DNA of 37,683 nucleotides from the NCBI GenBank assembly GCA_905193145.1, contig CAJJNP010000009.1, forward strand, positions 1 through 37,683, written 5' to 3'. Every line of letters begins with the position of its first letter. The stretch's first letter is position 1. The translations under genes were made by a program, and so were the position numbers. The DNA comes from an uncultured Odoribacter sp. Its GTDB lineage: Bacteria; Bacteroidota; Bacteroidia; Bacteroidales; Marinifilaceae. Shown here piece after piece: positions 19,833-26,117 of this stretch. The notes below the pieces were generated by a model. That model saw only the letters and a list, made by a program, of their open reading frames with translations, was not told where the DNA came from and made no database searches.

Positions 19833-20060
19833 ATGGATAAGAAGCAACAAGACATTGCATATTTTATTGCTTTTAGCATTGAGCAATATAAAAATGCAAA
19901 AGGTATGAGTGGCGAAGAAGTCATGCAACTATTTAACAGATATAGAGTTCTGGAATATTTGCAGGATTTCTTTGATGTATTGCATACACAAGGGTATCAA
20001 TGGATTATCAATGATATTGACCAATTTATAAACCTAAGAAAACAGGAGGAGCAGAAATGA
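19833..20060 (+). CDS. DUF3791 small protein, putative antitoxin partner
   Basis: Protein of 75 aa, predicted mostly helical. QQDIAYFIAFSIEQYKNAKGMSGEEV followed by LFNRYRVLEYLQDFFDVLHTQG and INDIDQFI fits DUF3791 as I recall it. The family has no firm function but is typically found next to DUF3990 genes in Bacteroidales and Firmicutes. It overlaps the DUF3990 start by four bases (ATGA), so the pair is translationally coupled. By context it may be the antitoxin or a partner of the DUF3990 protein; this is inference. Confidence 0.75.
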   Translation: MDKKQQDIAYFIAFSIEQYKNAKGMSGEEVMQLFNRYRVLEYLQDFFDVLHTQGYQWIINDIDQFINLRKQEEQK

Positions 20061-20542
20061 AAATATATCATGGTAGTGTAGATGTGGTGAGTAATCCTGA
20101 AATCAGAGAACCTAATCGTCGTCTTGATTATGGTGCAGGTTTTTATGCAACAACATCATACGAACAGGCAGAGCGTTGGGTACAACGTAAAATGAGAGAA
20201 TGTAAATCTGGGAAAGGTTTTATAAATGTATATGATTTTGATGGAAAAGTGATGGATACGTTGAAGTCTCTGTCATTCACAACACCAACAGAAGAATGGG
20301 TTGATTTTGTGATGTTGAATAGAACGGAGCAAGATTATATTCATGATTATGATATTGTGTATGGTCCTGTAGCTAATGACCGAGTATATGCTGCATTTGC
20401 GTTATACGAAGCTCACCTCATCAGCAAACAGATACTTATAGCAGAATTGAAGACCTATAAGTTGGTAGACCAATATCTTTTTCATACTGAGAGATCACTT
20501 GAAAGTATAACATTTATTGAGGCAAAGGAGGTTACATTATGA
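20057..20542 (+). CDS. DUF3990 protein, ADP-ribosyltransferase-like putative toxin
   Basis: Protein of 161 aa opening with KIYHGS (Tyr4-His5-Gly6) and then LDYGAGFYATTSYEQAERW at 23-41. The YHGS start and the GxGFYxT segment recall the NAD-binding half of ADP-ribosyltransferase folds, the clan to which DUF3990 is assigned as far as I remember. Further marks are NVYDFDGKVMD and VYGPVANDRVYAAFALYEA, where a catalytic acid may lie. It overlaps DUF3791 upstream by four bases and the 72-aa gene downstream by four bases. This looks like a compact operon with a nucleotide- or protein-modifying toxin in the middle. Catalytic activity and target are not shown. Confidence 0.75.
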   Translation: MKIYHGSVDVVSNPEIREPNRRLDYGAGFYATTSYEQAERWVQRKMRECKSGKGFINVYDFDGKVMDTLKSLSFTTPTEEWVDFVMLNRTEQDYIHDYDIVYGPVANDRVYAAFALYEAHLISKQILIAELKTYKLVDQYLFHTERSLESITFIEAKEVTL

Positions 20543-20892: not shown

Positions 20893-21921
20893 ATGAGATA
20901 TTTAGGGAGTAAGGAATCTCTTACAAATCAGATATTAGAATTACTTAGAAGCAAAGGTCTATTGCAGAATGATTATGTGTTCTGTGACGGTTTTTGCGGT
21001 ATGGGATCTATTGCTGATTCCGTAAAAAACATATATAGGAAAATTATCATCAACGATTCACTTAAATGCGCTTCTGTTTTCACACATGCTAAGTTGATTG
21101 CAAATGAATGTACTTTCGAAATGCTGGGCTTTGATCCTTTCGAATTCCTAAACAACTGCGATGGATTTAGAGAAGGTTTTGTTTATCAGAACTATTCTCC
21201 AGGAGTATCTGATCGCATGTATTTCACCAAAGAAAATGCGGGACGTATTGATTATTTTAGAGATCAAATTGAGAAATGGTATGTGTCAAATGATATAAAC
21301 AACAATGAATATTCTTATTTGTTAGCCTGCTTGCTTGAATCAGTTTCTGACGTATCGAATACAGCTGGGGTGTATGGTGCCTTCCTTAAACATTGGGATA
21401 AAAGAGCACTCAAGCCTATTGTGTTCAGTAGAATAGATGCTTCATTAGGTATAGCTAACGAAGTTGAAGTCTATAATTCGAAGATTGAGGATATAATCTC
21501 GAATATTGATTGTGACATACTATACCTTGATCCACCATATACTCAAAACCAATATGGTACGCAATACCATTTATTGGAAACACTCGTCTTAAACGACACA
21601 CCAACAATTAGTAGGATTACAGGGTCTCGTCCCACTACACCAATGCGCTCACAATGGTCAAAGAACTATTGTGCCCATGTTCTTTTTGATAAAGTCGTTG
21701 CTGAAACAAAGGCCAAATATATTGTCTTCAGCTATAATAATGATGGATTTATGTCGAAAGACTTTATTGAGACCACCCTGAAACGGTATGGAGTTGAGGA
21801 AAGTTACATATGCGAAATTATTAATTATAAAAAATATAATAACTTCAAGTGCCAAGGCGCTGATGATCATTTTGAATTTTTGTTCTTTATAGAAAAAAAC
21901 CTTCCGACTCTATTGTCATAG
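20893..21921 (+). CDS. D12-class adenine-N6 DNA methyltransferase, M.FokI N-half-like (M1)
   Basis: Amino-methyltransferase of 342 aa. MRYLGSKESL is the D12 motif X, FCDGFCGMGSIA the SAM-binding motif I (FxGxG), and LDPPY at 212-216 the catalytic motif IV. The segment SNTAGVYGAFLKHWDKRAL closely recalls, from memory, the N-terminal domain of M.FokI, the Type IIS methylase that modifies one strand of an asymmetric site. Here it is a separate gene, followed after 8 bp by a second D12 methyltransferase, like a split version of that two-domain enzyme. Expected role: protecting host DNA from the linked HNH nuclease. The recognition sequence cannot be predicted reliably. Confidence 0.88.
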   Translation: MRYLGSKESLTNQILELLRSKGLLQNDYVFCDGFCGMGSIADSVKNIYRKIIINDSLKCASVFTHAKLIANECTFEMLGFDPFEFLNNCDGFREGFVYQNYSPGVSDRMYFTKENAGRIDYFRDQIEKWYVSNDINNNEYSYLLACLLESVSDVSNTAGVYGAFLKHWDKRALKPIVFSRIDASLGIANEVEVYNSKIEDIISNIDCDILYLDPPYTQNQYGTQYHLLETLVLNDTPTISRITGSRPTTPMRSQWSKNYCAHVLFDKVVAETKAKYIVFSYNNDGFMSKDFIETTLKRYGVEESYICEIINYKKYNNFKCQGADDHFEFLFFIEKNLPTLLS

Positions 21922-21929
21922 AGTCTCCA

Positions 21930-22745
21930 TTGAATTATACTGGTAGTAAATCCAAAATGGTTGGATTTATCAAGAGTCAGTTACCTTCTGGCAATATAGA
22001 TACTTTCATTGATGCTTTTGGTGGCGGATTCAATGTAGGAGTAAACATCGACGCAAATAAAATCATATATAATGATATCAATCCGTTTGTGGAAGGACTA
22101 ATTCGTTCTTTCTATAGCGAACCATGCTCGTATTTACAATACATCGAAAAACAAATAAAGAAGTACAATCTTTCACCCGACAACAAAAAAGGCTTCCTTC
22201 AGTTGCGAGAAAAATATAATAGTATACCTGTGAATAAACGTGATCCTCGTATGCTTTACACGCTCATCTTATATGGATTCCAGCAACAAATTAGATTCAA
22301 CACCAATTGGGGGTTCAACAACCCTGCAGGTTCACGTTGGTTTAATGAAAATCTTCTTTCAAAATTTATTGCCTTTACACGAAGTTTGCAAGCTAAAAAT
22401 GTGGTGTTCATGAATTCAAGTTTTAAAAATCTTGATATACAATTTACCCCAAATATGTTCATTTACGCCGACCCTCCTTATCGTTCGACTCTTGGTGTAT
22501 ACAATGATGGTAAACGTGGTTTTGAAGGATGGACTTTGGAACATGAACAACAATTGTGTGAATTCCTCGATATAGCAAACAAACATGAGTCAAAGTTCAT
22601 GTTGTCTTACGTAGTCAGTGTTGGAGATTTTACAAACAACGAAATTATAGAATGGACAAATAAAAACAAATATCACATGGTAAATGTAGTTACTCCACAA
22701 GGTAGGTACAATAATCGCCATGAGGTATTAATCAAAAACTACTAA
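21930..22745 (+). CDS. D12-class adenine-N6 DNA methyltransferase (M2), TTG start
   Basis: Dam/DpnM-like adenine methyltransferase of 271 aa. Motif X is NYTGSKSKMV, motif I DAFGGGFNVG, and motif IV DPPY at 181-184. No in-frame ATG lies at the N-terminus, and TTG at 21930 gives the exact family opening, so TTG is the probable start. It lies only 8 bp behind M1, and 2 bp separate its stop from the HNH start. With M1 it could modify the two strands of an asymmetric site. The target-recognition region between motifs I and IV (FNTNWGFNNPAGSRWFNE) is well preserved, so the enzyme looks intact. Confidence 0.87.
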   Translation: MNYTGSKSKMVGFIKSQLPSGNIDTFIDAFGGGFNVGVNIDANKIIYNDINPFVEGLIRSFYSEPCSYLQYIEKQIKKYNLSPDNKKGFLQLREKYNSIPVNKRDPRMLYTLILYGFQQQIRFNTNWGFNNPAGSRWFNENLLSKFIAFTRSLQAKNVVFMNSSFKNLDIQFTPNMFIYADPPYRSTLGVYNDGKRGFEGWTLEHEQQLCEFLDIANKHESKFMLSYVVSVGDFTNNEIIEWTNKNKYHMVNVVTPQGRYNNRHEVLIKNY

Positions 22746-22747
22746 TT

Positions 22748-23929
22748 ATGGTAGCAGTAATAACATATCGCCCTAATGCTCAAAAGACTCCTGGTCTATT
22801 TGATAGAATCTTGACAAGCGATATTCTTCGGGATATATGTGTGAGAGTCACAGGACAAGACGAATATAGGGTAGTTCGTGATACATCGACATATAACAGA
22901 GGAAGATTAATCACTATTGAATATTGCGGCATGAAGAACTATGTTTCTTTATCAGAAGTTTCTGTAGAAGGCCGTAATCAGAGTGTTCAGAGCATTCCAA
23001 CCGCTATGAATCTTTTTTATGCAGACCCTTCTGTGAATAAAGCTCTTTACTATTATTTTGTGCCTCATAATGGCAACTATTTCACTGATTACCATCTTGT
23101 TTATTTCCGTTTATTAAAAACGGCAGGTATGATTTTCTTAAATTTTCTTGATTATTATCCATCGGAGATATATGCTTTCAGGAGTATTGATGAAATAATA
23201 GACGAAAGGAATGATAACCGAGAAACAAATAGATCAAATAATTCCTCGTTCATTTCAAAAACATCAGATAAAGTTCAGATTTATGCAAAGACCTATGGTG
23301 CAAGCAAGTATGAATCTACACTTCTGGCTATAGCTGCATCAAAAATAACTGATAGGCCTATTGACTTATACAACATTTGTGAGCAAGATCTTACTCACTT
23401 ACCCGCGGCATCTTTGACTACAATAAACGCCTTGGGCAATATCTCTGTACACGATACATCTATTACATTAGAGAAGAGAACTTTTATCAACTCTAGAGAT
23501 AAAAGCGAGTTGCGCTCACCAATATATCAGCGCAACCTTTTGCAAAGGCTTGGTCGTAAACATTGTGCGCTGTGTGGATGTGAAATTTCAGAAATTATTC
23601 AGGGGGCGCATATATGGGGCGTCGCGGAGATTGCTCGGAATGACCAATTTAACGATGATGTTAAGTTTGACCATGCAATAAGTGGCGAAAATGGATTGTG
23701 GCTTTGCCAAAACCATCACAAATTGTTTGACTCGCACTATCTGGCATTTAATGTAGATGGTCACTTAATGGTTCCAAGCAACTTACGTGATGAAGATGGC
23801 AGATTCATACGTAGCATTACCGAAAAACACATCTTGAGTGATCAAATTATGACGGATAATTTCATATGGTATCTTTCTCAACGCAATCGTATACGTGATT
23901 ATTCCCATTACCAGCGATTAGTAGTATGA
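22748..23929 (+). CDS. HNH nuclease, probable restriction endonuclease
   Basis: Protein of 393 aa with a C-terminal HNH domain at about 273-328: zinc-type Cys pair CALC (273-276), AHIWGV with His288, then NGLWLCQNHHKLFD (315-328) with the Asn and the two His (323-324). This HNH_2-type arrangement fits restriction endonucleases. The N-terminal 260 residues have no domain I recognise, apart from KTYGASKYE near 190-200, and probably hold DNA recognition. It sits between M2 and M3 in one tightly packed operon, the usual place for the cutting subunit. Its stop overlaps the M3 start by four bases. No signal peptide. Cleavage activity and site are unknown. Confidence 0.82.
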   Translation: MVAVITYRPNAQKTPGLFDRILTSDILRDICVRVTGQDEYRVVRDTSTYNRGRLITIEYCGMKNYVSLSEVSVEGRNQSVQSIPTAMNLFYADPSVNKALYYYFVPHNGNYFTDYHLVYFRLLKTAGMIFLNFLDYYPSEIYAFRSIDEIIDERNDNRETNRSNNSSFISKTSDKVQIYAKTYGASKYESTLLAIAASKITDRPIDLYNICEQDLTHLPAASLTTINALGNISVHDTSITLEKRTFINSRDKSELRSPIYQRNLLQRLGRKHCALCGCEISEIIQGAHIWGVAEIARNDQFNDDVKFDHAISGENGLWLCQNHHKLFDSHYLAFNVDGHLMVPSNLRDEDGRFIRSITEKHILSDQIMTDNFIWYLSQRNRIRDYSHYQRLVV

Positions 23930-25143
23930 TGCTTAAAGAATATAAAACAAAACAATTCTCCGACTTTAAACTATATTGTGGAGATTCTACAGATGTCATG
24001 TCGCAGATTGATAATCAATTCGATATGATATTTGCAGACCCGCCATATTTTTTATCAACAGGGAATGGAAGAGTCAATATCAACGGCAAGTATATCAAAT
24101 TTGATAAAGGCGAGTGGGATAAAGTACGTTCCTCAGATGAAAAGGACAAATTCAATATGTCTTGGCTTACTTTATGCAAAGAACGTTTAAAAAATAACGG
24201 TACTATTTGGGTCTCAGGGACGTATCATAACATTTTCTCCGTAGCTGATTGCATGGAATCACTAGGTTTCAATATTCTGAATTTTATAGTATGGCATAAA
24301 ACAGATCCACCACATTCACTAACCGAAAAGCGCTTTGATTTCTCTGCGGAGTATATCATATGGGCAAGCAAAACCAAATATGCTGACCATTATTTCAATA
24401 AGGAGTTGATGACCGCAATGAATAATGGTGAACCCATGCAAGATGTCTGGACTATGTCAGCGACAGAGCAATGGGAAAAGATGTGTGGAAAGCATCCTAC
24501 ACAAAAGCCCCTACAATTGCTGTACCGAATAATTATGGCCTCTACTCTTCCTGGTGCATCAATACTCGACCCTTTTGCTGGGAGTTGTACTACAGGTATC
24601 GCTGCTAATCTTACAGGAAGAACATTTGTTGGAATAGATCAAAGTACAGAATATCTTGACCTAGGTGTTAGACGTAAACAGGCTATTGTGGATTCTAATA
24701 CAGCATCCGATTTATATGTGAAAATGGTAGCTAATCCTAACGAGCCCATGGTTTTAGTTAATCATGCAAGACCGGAACTATACAATAAGATGATCGAAAC
24801 AGGTATCTGCTATTTAAGAGCAGGTGATTCGTGTGGATCGCTTCTTGTTAAGCCAGGATTTGAGCGTATTCAATACGTGCTATTACATAACGGTGGTGCT
24901 AATGCCAAACTTTTCAAGTTAAAAACAAAAGGGCGTTTTCAGATATGGACAAAAGATTCGTTGGGTAATTATGGTTTCAATCCGACTCATGCACCATATT
25001 ACGTTATATTACCATTTGATAATCAATCAGAAATAAAGATGGAATGCACGCCGAACCTATTTGAAAACAAGTACACTTATGTGGCTAAGATAAGACCTAT
25101 TAGTGAATTCATTAGTAGTACATTTGATAGACTAGAGAGATGA
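23926..25143 (+). CDS. Beta-class amino-methyltransferase with C-terminal extension (M3)
   Basis: Protein of 405 aa. Motif order is beta-class: catalytic DPPY first (38-41, in FADPPYFLSTGNGRV), then KHPTQKP near 190 and the SAM-binding DPFAGSCTTG at 215-224, as in M.MboII or M.RsrI. Such enzymes make N6-methyladenine or N4-methylcytosine. The methylase core ends near 245. About 150 further residues (roughly 255-405) are not part of a normal beta-class enzyme and match no domain I recognise; they might recognise DNA or contact the nuclease. Two tandem ATG codons (23926, 23929) overlap the HNH stop. As the third methyltransferase of one operon it is surplus to a two-strand scheme. Confidence 0.85.
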   Translation: MMLKEYKTKQFSDFKLYCGDSTDVMSQIDNQFDMIFADPPYFLSTGNGRVNINGKYIKFDKGEWDKVRSSDEKDKFNMSWLTLCKERLKNNGTIWVSGTYHNIFSVADCMESLGFNILNFIVWHKTDPPHSLTEKRFDFSAEYIIWASKTKYADHYFNKELMTAMNNGEPMQDVWTMSATEQWEKMCGKHPTQKPLQLLYRIIMASTLPGASILDPFAGSCTTGIAANLTGRTFVGIDQSTEYLDLGVRRKQAIVDSNTASDLYVKMVANPNEPMVLVNHARPELYNKMIETGICYLRAGDSCGSLLVKPGFERIQYVLLHNGGANAKLFKLKTKGRFQIWTKDSLGNYGFNPTHAPYYVILPFDNQSEIKMECTPNLFENKYTYVAKIRPISEFISSTFDRLER

Positions 25144-25244: not shown

Positions 25245-26117
25245 ATGGATTGTAAAATATTGATTAATAGAAATATTATTAATATTCTTATCGGAGATGA
25301 GAAAGTATGTGAAGAATATAGACTTCCATATTTATCTGGTCCTGATTTGTGTGCTTTATCTACAGAATTCGGTTTACAAAAATCTTATTCCTGGAATGGA
25401 GGTGGAGTGAGTAGATGGGTGTATATGCAGGATTTAATGACATATTTAGAAAAGCAAGGTCGATTATTTGAATTATTTTCTAGATTGTTTGATAGACAAT
25501 ATTTTAAAGAATTATCTAAACTAACATCTCCAGAATTAGTGACATCAACATATAATTCAATAGTGGATTGTGCTATAAAACGAATTAATGCTAATCTTAT
25601 ACTTGCTAAAAAAGAATTAAGAGTTCATAAAGGTCAGTTCACATTGACAGATGCTGGAACAGAACCAGTATTTATAGCTCCTAAGGTAAAAGTTGTGGAT
25701 AGACAATATATACGTGAATTACCAGAACGAATAAAAGATGATCTTGAACATAAGGATTATGATAGTGTCATTACAAAGTCTAGGACTCTTTTAGAAGAAG
25801 TCTTAATTTTTATAATTGAAAGATTGACTAAAGAACGATATAAGAGTAACGGCGATCTAGTTAAGATTTATCAAGAAACTACGGATTTGCTAAATATGCG
25901 ACAAAAAGGCGATTGGGACAAACGTGTAAATGAATTATTAGGAGGAATGCATAAAATAGTTAGTGCCATAGCAAGTATGAGAAACTTGAATAGTGATGCT
26001 CATGGTGCAGGTGCTGGAAGAATTAATATTCGTGAAAGAGAAGCTCTTTTAGCAGCAAATTCGTCTATGATGCTTGCAGAATATTGGCTGGCAGTTTATG
26101 AAACAAAAGCTAAATAA
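25245..26117 (+). CDS. Abortive-infection protein with Abi_C/HEPN-like C-terminus
   Basis: Soluble protein of 290 aa. The C-terminal half (about 150-285) matches the abortive-infection C-terminal domain (Abi_C, PF14355): DYDSVITKSRTLLEEVL, then a helical region and RNLNSDAHGAG. The latter contains R246-x6-H253, the spacing of the HEPN RNase motif, so an RNA-cutting suicide activity is a reasonable hypothesis. The N-terminal part (1-140) has LSGPDLCALSTEFGL and YSWNGGGVSRWVYM, whose role is unknown; it may sense infection. Placed 101 bp after M3 on the same strand, so likely part of the same defence island. Its 3' end overlaps a small opposing ORF by 69 bp. Confidence 0.8.
   Translation: MDCKILINRNIINILIGDEKVCEEYRLPYLSGPDLCALSTEFGLQKSYSWNGGGVSRWVYMQDLMTYLEKQGRLFELFSRLFDRQYFKELSKLTSPELVTSTYNSIVDCAIKRINANLILAKKELRVHKGQFTLTDAGTEPVFIAPKVKVVDRQYIRELPERIKDDLEHKDYDSVITKSRTLLEEVLIFIIERLTKERYKSNGDLVKIYQETTDLLNMRQKGDWDKRVNELLGGMHKIVSAIASMRNLNSDAHGAGAGRINIREREALLAANSSMMLAEYWLAVYETKAK

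What the first reader, a model, noticed from the sequence alone, without database searches (positions are those of the whole stretch)
20893..25143. Three amino-methyltransferases with one HNH nuclease in a single operon
Two D12-class adenine methyltransferases, an HNH nuclease and a beta-class methyltransferase are packed with gaps or overlaps of 8, 2 and -4 bp. An asymmetric Type IIS site needs two methyltransferases; a third is surplus. The nuclease is HNH rather than FokI-type. Motifs are seen directly; the R-M role is inferred. It may be a new R-M variant, for example one with more than one modified adenine per site or an activity regulated by M3.
Basis: partly seen in the sequence, partly recalled or inferred. 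Interest (0 to 1): 0.72.

Follow-up and report, generated by a model that had tools for sequence, protein, structure and literature searches.

The report
FokI-like HNH restriction system plus add-on methyltransferase
This is a bacterial DNA-cutting immune system whose two-headed protective enzyme is split by a frameshift in this copy, and whose 'extra' protective enzyme belongs to a family found beside many unrelated DNA-cutting systems and apparently re-tuned to each one's target.

Summary
The four ORFs exist as described, but the operon is a three-gene Type II R-M system. M1 and M2 are the halves of one FokI-type dual adenine methyltransferase: one ORF in 24 of 24 related loci and in 120 of the 120 best database hits, one of them 99.7%/99.3% identical to the window halves. 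The window copy is frameshifted at a 7-A run (21893-21899). The partner is a MAG4270-like HNH endonuclease with an intact HNH domain and an N-terminal part related to another endonuclease family. Fused MTase plus HNH is the core; M3 is present in 11 of 23 such loci, all 11 Bacteroidota. M3 is a CcrM/DpnA-like methyltransferase with a conserved ~140-aa extension lacking Pfam and PDB sequence matches. In Bacteroidales, methyltransferases with this extension sit beside DpnII, AlwI, EcoRV, MunI, MjaI, Sau3AI/MutH-like, DUF6996/6997 and HNH endonucleases. M3's two recognition loops, which fall on CcrM's strand-separating loops, differ by partner system more than its backbone does. Best explanation: M3 is an accessory methyltransferase matched to its partner's site, possibly acting on single-stranded or opened DNA as DpnA does. 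Recognition sequence and ssDNA activity are inferred, not shown.

The parts
20893..21921 (+). M1 = N-terminal half of a FokI-type dual D12 adenine methyltransferase (342 aa as read; ends early through a frame change)
   Evidence: PF02086 2.6e-30; PADLOC PDLC03287 positions 1-339 of 646, 1.1e-83; fused to M2 in 24 of 24 related loci
21893..21899 (+). run of seven A where the frame of the fused methyltransferase is lost (strain mutation, slippage site or sequencing/assembly error: not decided)
   Evidence: intact near-identical copy P0278 exists
21930..22745 (+). M2 = C-terminal half of the same methyltransferase; TTG 'start' is internal in relatives
   Evidence: PF02086 9.7e-28; PDLC03287 positions 367-641 of 646, 8.7e-70
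22748..23929 (+). putative restriction endonuclease (393 aa), MAG4270-like, with C-terminal HNH domain
   Evidence: PF13391 1.4e-9; NF045952 1.6e-8, 34.1 bits, below its 53-bit cut-off; 27 loci
22961..23305 (+). endonuclease aa 72-186: stretch related to the 471-aa endonuclease ('R471') of split two-methyltransferase systems; the EETK motif invariant in 11 R471 sequences is not kept
   Evidence: hmmsearch E 3.1e-10 to 1.5e-8 for 4 of 4 R471 sequences in an 11-sequence test set; hhalign probability 94.5; R471 motif
23564..23752 (+). HNH domain (aa 273-335) with invariant C273, C276, C278, H288, N315, C320, N322, H323, H324
23926..25143 (+). M3 = accessory beta-class methyltransferase (405 aa), CcrM/DpnA-like
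24037..24099 (+). M3 aa 38-58: DPPY motif and variable loop on the position of CcrM loop-2B
   Evidence: alignment; loops by system; CcrM loops PMC13092597 passages
24301..24348 (+). M3 aa 126-141: variable loop on the position of CcrM loop-45
24709..25140 (+). M3 aa 262-405: conserved C-terminal extension without Pfam or PDB sequence match
   Evidence: shared by 28 loci beside different R-M systems

Best explanation
A Type II (probably IIS-like) R-M system with an add-on. (1) Core: one FokI-type dual adenine methyltransferase, one half per strand of an asymmetric site, plus a single-chain HNH endonuclease that cuts unmodified DNA; its N-terminal region derives from, or shares ancestry with, a PD-(D/E)XK-like endonuclease but lacks that family's EETK motif, and the HNH domain presumably does the cutting. 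(2) In this copy the methyltransferase is frameshifted at an A-run; intact copies exist. (3) M3 is an accessory CcrM/DpnA-like adenine methyltransferase whose two recognition loops are matched to the partner endonuclease's site and whose common C-terminal extension marks a family that joins unrelated R-M systems. By analogy with DpnA and CcrM it reads one strand of opened or single-stranded DNA and so can mark incoming or just-replicated DNA that the double-strand methyltransferase would reach too late. Shown here: anatomy, fusion in relatives, core without M3, M3's spread over partner systems, loops differing by partner. Inferred: R-M activity, the site (GGATG/CATCC favoured, not established), M3 matching the same site, ssDNA action.
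For: Fused M1-M2 in 24 of 24 loci and 120 of 120 listed hits; related fused MTases next to annotated FokI-type endonucleases in 4 fetched plasmid loci (FokI domains checked in one). M3 present in 11 of 23 HNH loci with at least 1.2 kb held after the nuclease gene, all 11 Bacteroidota, and absent from 12, so it is not needed for the core. Loop identity minus backbone identity: +0.086 within systems (156 pairs), -0.234 between (250 pairs), 0 of 250 between-system pairs with loops more alike than backbone. HNH-system M3s L002 and L068 group apart from the other HNH M3s on the backbone tree yet keep the HNH-type loops. CcrM recognises mainly one strand through these loops and methylates ssDNA (passages of PMC13092597); DpnA methylates ssDNA (PMC3573125 abstract and passages).
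Against: No activity, cleavage site or methylome was seen. The D12 trees do not place the HNH clade with FokI rather than AlwI relatives, so GGATG is not proven. R471 systems, linked to GGATG only by gene order and lengths, carry no M3 in 8 of 8 loci. 5 of 28 extension loci (endonuclease R241) show no second methyltransferase, so there the M3-type enzyme may be the only one and would have to protect double-stranded DNA. For an asymmetric site one M3 marks only one strand, so ssDNA protection would be partial. System labels follow clades in part, so the permutation is no probability; DUF6996/6997 and Sau3AI-like loci were labelled GATC from their Dam-type partner or family. AlwI, EcoRV and MunI are single cases. 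GGATG is not avoided in the window (79 seen, 78.7 expected).
Confidence: 0.6

Rival explanations
1. M3 is simply a second ordinary double-strand methyltransferase for the same site (redundant protection, dosage buffer or insurance), with no special ssDNA role.
For: 5 of 28 extension loci show no other methyltransferase; loops match partner; CcrM also works on dsDNA.
Against: For DpnII systems DpnA is the known second enzyme and acts on ssDNA; a simple double would not explain one conserved extension shared across unrelated systems.
Confidence: 0.25
2. M3 has its own, different target and belongs to the defence island rather than to this R-M system (orphan or anti-restriction methyltransferase that happens to be next door).
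For: Beta-class orphan methyltransferases are common; the operon is followed by an AbiJ-like gene.
Against: M3 follows the HNH gene directly, overlapping by 4 bp here, and is found in 11 of 23 HNH loci; the loops fall into one type per partner system.
Confidence: 0.1
3. One reading: three separate methyltransferases modify three adenines of one asymmetric site.
For: Three methyltransferase domains are encoded. Recalled, not from a call: BstF5I (GGATG) is said to have four methyltransferases.
Against: M1 and M2 are one protein in relatives; GGATG/CATCC has one adenine per strand, so three adenines per site is not possible if that is the site.
Confidence: 0.03
4. The window system is dead: the frameshift removed part of the protective methyltransferase, M3 alone keeps protection, or the nuclease is silent.
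For: Frame is broken in the only copy seen in the window; M3 could fill the gap.
Against: Both halves remain open reading frames and could act as two proteins, as in the split systems L038 and L042; HNH and M3 are intact; the A-run may be a sequencing error.
Confidence: 0.2

Closest known systems
FokI R-M (GGATG; dual D12 methyltransferase joined in one chain)
   Same: Two D12 domains in one chain in the relatives; 31-35% (M1) and 34-40% (M2) identity to the methyltransferases beside FokI-type endonucleases on four plasmids
   Different: Endonuclease is HNH with no profile similarity to FokI-type endonucleases; the window chain is split by frameshift; M3 is added
MAG4270 family putative restriction endonuclease (NCBIfam NF045952)
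   Same: C-terminal match; Pusillibacter plasmid relative passes the cut-off (54 vs 53 bits) and sits after a fused D12 methyltransferase
   Different: Window protein scores 34.1 bits, below the cut-off
Split two-methyltransferase GGATG systems such as Pin25611FI/Pin17FI of Prevotella intermedia (PMC5608340, passages)
   Same: Dam-like + M1-like + ~471-aa endonuclease; that endonuclease shares a stretch with the HNH protein
   Different: No HNH, no M3 in 8 of 8 Bacteroidales loci; identity of R471 with the Pin enzymes rests on gene order and length only
DpnII system with ssDNA methylase DpnA (PMC3573125)
   Same: Extra beta-class methyltransferase beside a D12 methyltransferase and endonuclease; M3 N-terminal part 47-50% identical to the homologue in DpnII-type systems on Lactococcus and Staphylococcus plasmids
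   Different: Those relatives lack the C-terminal extension and carry GATC-type loops; M3 here serves another system
CcrM (6PBD)
   Same: Best solved relative; loops align with loop-2B and loop-45
   Different: C-terminal part did not align; CcrM is described as a cell-cycle enzyme for GANTC; loop sequence differs
Plasmid single-strand-specific methyltransferases M.BceJIII / M.EcoGIX (PMC7736820, abstract)
   Same: Shows m6A enzymes that protect entering single strands from restriction
   Different: Plasmid-borne and promiscuous (SAY), not in an R-M operon
BstF5I (recalled, no call)
   Same: GGATG system said to have more than two methyltransferases
   Different: Not compared; search of the paper library gave no paper on its methyltransferases among 3 listed

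Membership tests
Type II R-M with FokI-type dual methyltransferase | two D12 domains in one chain | tested here: met
   In 24 of 24 related loci and P0278; in the window itself the chain is interrupted by a frameshift
Type II R-M with FokI-type dual methyltransferase | adjacent endonuclease | tested here: met
   HNH gene 2 bp after M2; order kept in 24 loci
Type II R-M with FokI-type dual methyltransferase | FokI-type endonuclease domains | tested here: not met
   Pfam gives HNH_2 only; no profile match to FokI-type endonucleases (E 2.2 and hhalign 0.1%)
Type II R-M with FokI-type dual methyltransferase | recognition of GGATG/CATCC | tested here: inconclusive
   HNH clade not nested with FokI relatives; AlwI (GGATC) relatives join the FokI/R471 side (82 and 97% support)
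Type II R-M with FokI-type dual methyltransferase | cleavage outside the site, blocked by methylation | not testable with these tools
   needs enzyme assay
MAG4270 family (NF045952) | score above curated cut-off | tested here: not met
   34.1 of 53 bits; relative L030 54 bits
HNH nuclease fold | conserved Cys/His/Asn set and HNH fold | tested here: met
DpnA (ssDNA methylase of DpnII systems) | beta-class methyltransferase homologous to DpnII-system second enzyme | tested here: met
   47-50% identity over aa 1-250 to homologues beside DpnII endonucleases
DpnA (ssDNA methylase of DpnII systems) | beside a DpnII endonuclease, GATC loops | tested here: not met
   partner is HNH; loop type differs
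DpnA (ssDNA methylase of DpnII systems) | methylates single-stranded DNA | not testable with these tools
   needs enzyme assay
CcrM | N-terminal beta-class domain with loop-2B and loop-45 | tested here: met
CcrM | 83-aa C-terminal domain | tested here: inconclusive
   alignment stops at CcrM residue 261-269; the extension could not be folded alone

The most novel reading that the evidence does not exclude
A general class of modular accessory methyltransferases, marked by one C-terminal domain, plugs into unrelated Type II R-M systems of Bacteroidales (at least eight endonuclease types seen) and is re-targeted to each by exchange or rapid change of two strand-separating loops, giving each restriction system a DpnA-like single-strand 'customs pass' for incoming DNA.
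Probability: 0.35. Interest if true: 0.75.

Novelty: new variant of a known kind. Interest (0 to 1): 0.52.

Why it matters
DpnA is usually treated as a special feature of DpnII strains of competent bacteria. If M3 is its general form, many Bacteroidales restriction systems carry a built-in way to let single-stranded incoming DNA survive, which bears on gene exchange in the gut and on why some strains are hard to engineer. The loops that change with the partner also give a natural series (GATC, GGATC, GATATC, CAATTG, the HNH site) for learning how CcrM-like enzymes choose their target. The HNH endonuclease suggests a swap of the cutting domain on an older endonuclease scaffold.

Tried and rejected
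Rejected: M1 and M2 as separate genes. Rejected as unproven: GGATG as established site. Trees of the two D12 halves (21 rows each) leave it open: HNH rows are together with 100% (N half) and 63% (C half) support, and AlwI rows join the FokI/R471 side.

Literature: searches (10 of 10 used). I saw listings for all; passages of PMC4081073, PMC7653180, PMC5608340, PMC4687069, PMC8754150, PMC13092597, PMC12707154; abstract, section 15 and passages of PMC3573125; abstract and outline of PMC7736820. None of the listings or passages described the extended M3 family; that is no proof of absence from print. REBASE was not available.

Rows dropped: in the loop test 29 sequences were used: 13 HNH, 13 labelled GATC, 1 each AlwI, EcoRV, MunI. 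Left out: 5 R241 rows (site unknown), L112 (different methyltransferase), L114 and L121 (no context), L117, L118 and L123 (short fragments), and 4 short DpnA-type rows. The backbone trees used 34 rows.
Full report
OBSERVATION. They lie between a DUF3990 gene (20057-20542) and an AbiJ-like gene (25245-26117).

M1 AND M2 ARE ONE GENE. A PADLOC type II methyltransferase profile of 646 positions matches M1 over 1-339 and M2 over 367-641. With the HNH protein as query, 27 loci were found in named genomes; 24 hold both methyltransferase halves upstream, always in the order M1-M2-HNH, and in 24 of 24 the halves are a single ORF of 613-637 aa. The protein search with the fused L001 protein listed 120 best hits; 120 of 120 hold both halves and one, P0278, is 99.7% and 99.3% identical to the window halves. 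In the window the frame changes at seven A (21893-21899) and the TTG read as the M2 start is an internal codon in the relatives. Whether this is a strain mutation, a slippage site or a sequencing error cannot be told. Two-gene versions of this methyltransferase do exist elsewhere (L038, L042), so the halves might still work separately.

AN OLDER SCAFFOLD. A profile of the HNH family matches, over aa 72-186, the 471-aa endonuclease of split systems from Psychrobacter and Bartonella (E 3.1e-10 to 1.5e-8 in an 11-sequence test set; hhalign 94.5%) and not FokI or AlwI endonucleases. Eleven R471 sequences keep an invariant D and an EETK motif typical of PD-(D/E)XK enzymes; the HNH proteins do not keep it. 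Inference: the cutting job moved to the HNH domain. Eight Bacteroidales loci of the R471 type have the order Dam-like, M1-like, R471 wherever the contig shows it, the same order and similar lengths as the Prevotella intermedia systems assigned to GGATG/CATCC by REBASE prediction and methylome motifs (PMC5608340 passages). I did not compare the Prevotella sequences. None of the eight has M3.

THE SITE. GGATG/CATCC is favoured by these relations but not established: in trees of both halves the AlwI (GGATC) relatives join the FokI/R471 side (82 and 97% support) and the HNH clade stands apart. M3 loops of the HNH systems differ from those of the AlwI-system M3 (identity 0.37, backbone 0.60), which speaks mildly against GGATC if M3 is matched to its partner.

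M3 IS OPTIONAL FOR THE CORE. Of 23 HNH loci with at least 1.2 kb held after the nuclease gene, 11 have M3, all Bacteroidota by record title or taxonomy (L013 looked up). Of the 12 without it, 3 are titled Bacteroidota (L011, L017, L022) and 9 are titled Fibrobacter, Colwellia, Moraxellaceae, archaea, candidate phyla or 'uncultured bacterium'. Most of these are metagenome-assembled genomes, so single assignments may be wrong.

M3 IS A MODULE SHARED BY MANY SYSTEMS. Full-length M3 was found in 10 of 393 Bacteroidales genomes (12 places) and in 1 of 395 genomes of the phylum sample (G001). The extension alone was found in 2 of 395 genomes of the class sample and in 2 of 15, 5 of 20, 2 of 14, 12 of 18 and 1 of 9 genomes of five families (these searches overlap). 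For 28 such places (24 genomes) the surroundings were read. Seventeen have an endonuclease and another methyltransferase: 9 DpnII; 2 DUF6996/6997 (a REase family in PADLOC); and one each of Sau3AI/MutH-like, AlwI, EcoRV, MunI with an MT-A70-type methyltransferase, MjaI (two copies, where the extension sits on a different, SPPY-type methyltransferase), and HNH. Two are DpnII at a contig edge, four are cut by contig ends, and five stand beside an endonuclease-like protein (R241) with no other methyltransferase seen; one of these five (L077) keeps a Dam fragment upstream. So the extended enzyme is not always an extra.

LOOPS FOLLOW THE PARTNER. Two stretches of M3 (aa 45-58 and 126-141) change with the partner system. 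Over 29 sequences with a labelled partner, loop identity minus backbone identity is +0.086 within systems (156 pairs; 142 of them at or above zero) and -0.234 between systems (250 pairs; none above zero); 0 of 10,000 label shuffles reach the contrast. Labels partly follow clades, so this is a description, not a probability. Better: M3s of two HNH systems, L002 and L068, group apart from the other HNH M3s on the backbone tree (90% support for the main HNH clade against the rest), L068 being 0.70 identical in backbone to a DpnII M3 and 0.63 to the window M3, while its loops are 0.34 and 0.63 identical respectively. The extension tree is again different, placing window and L001 with the EcoRV-system M3, which suggests mosaic evolution.

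VERDICT. The core is an unusual but widespread member of a known kind; the three-methyltransferase reading is partly a frameshift. What is new to me is the extended M3 family and its partner-matched loops. I found no description of it in the listings and passages seen (searches named in Tried and rejected), which is no proof that none exists.

Noticed in passing
window 25245-26117: AbiJ-like gene (PADLOC AbiJ 2.5e-76; Pfam Abi_C) directly after the operon: a small defence island
   Followed up: no
window 20057-20542: DUF3990 protein, matches PADLOC candidate PDC-M13B (2e-63), upstream of the operon
   Followed up: no
window 1-37683: GATC is rare (49 seen, 127.6 expected from shorter words) while GGATG is not (79 vs 78.7); may be a taxon trait, not tested
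   Followed up: no
L015 5901-7034: second, diverged HNH protein (35% to the window one) right after the first: possibly one subunit per strand
   Followed up: no
L022 8001-9183: HNH gene split by a frame change in a Prevotella genome with an intact fused methyltransferase and no M3
   Followed up: no
L038 5433-8307: two tandem R471-type endonuclease genes (467 and 471 aa) after split methyltransferases on a Psychrobacter plasmid
   Followed up: partly
L112 3507-7368: two MjaI-family endonucleases facing two methyltransferases, one carrying the M3-type extension on an SPPY-type domain
   Followed up: partly
L077, L108, L116, L119, L120: extended methyltransferase with GATC-type loops beside a ~240-aa protein (weak HARE-HTH and REase_II matches) and no second methyltransferase
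   Followed up: partly
L079 7202-8527 (L046 160-1485): 441-aa protein without Pfam, NCBIfam or PADLOC match between a DpnII endonuclease and a short DpnA-like methyltransferase in G001
   Followed up: partly
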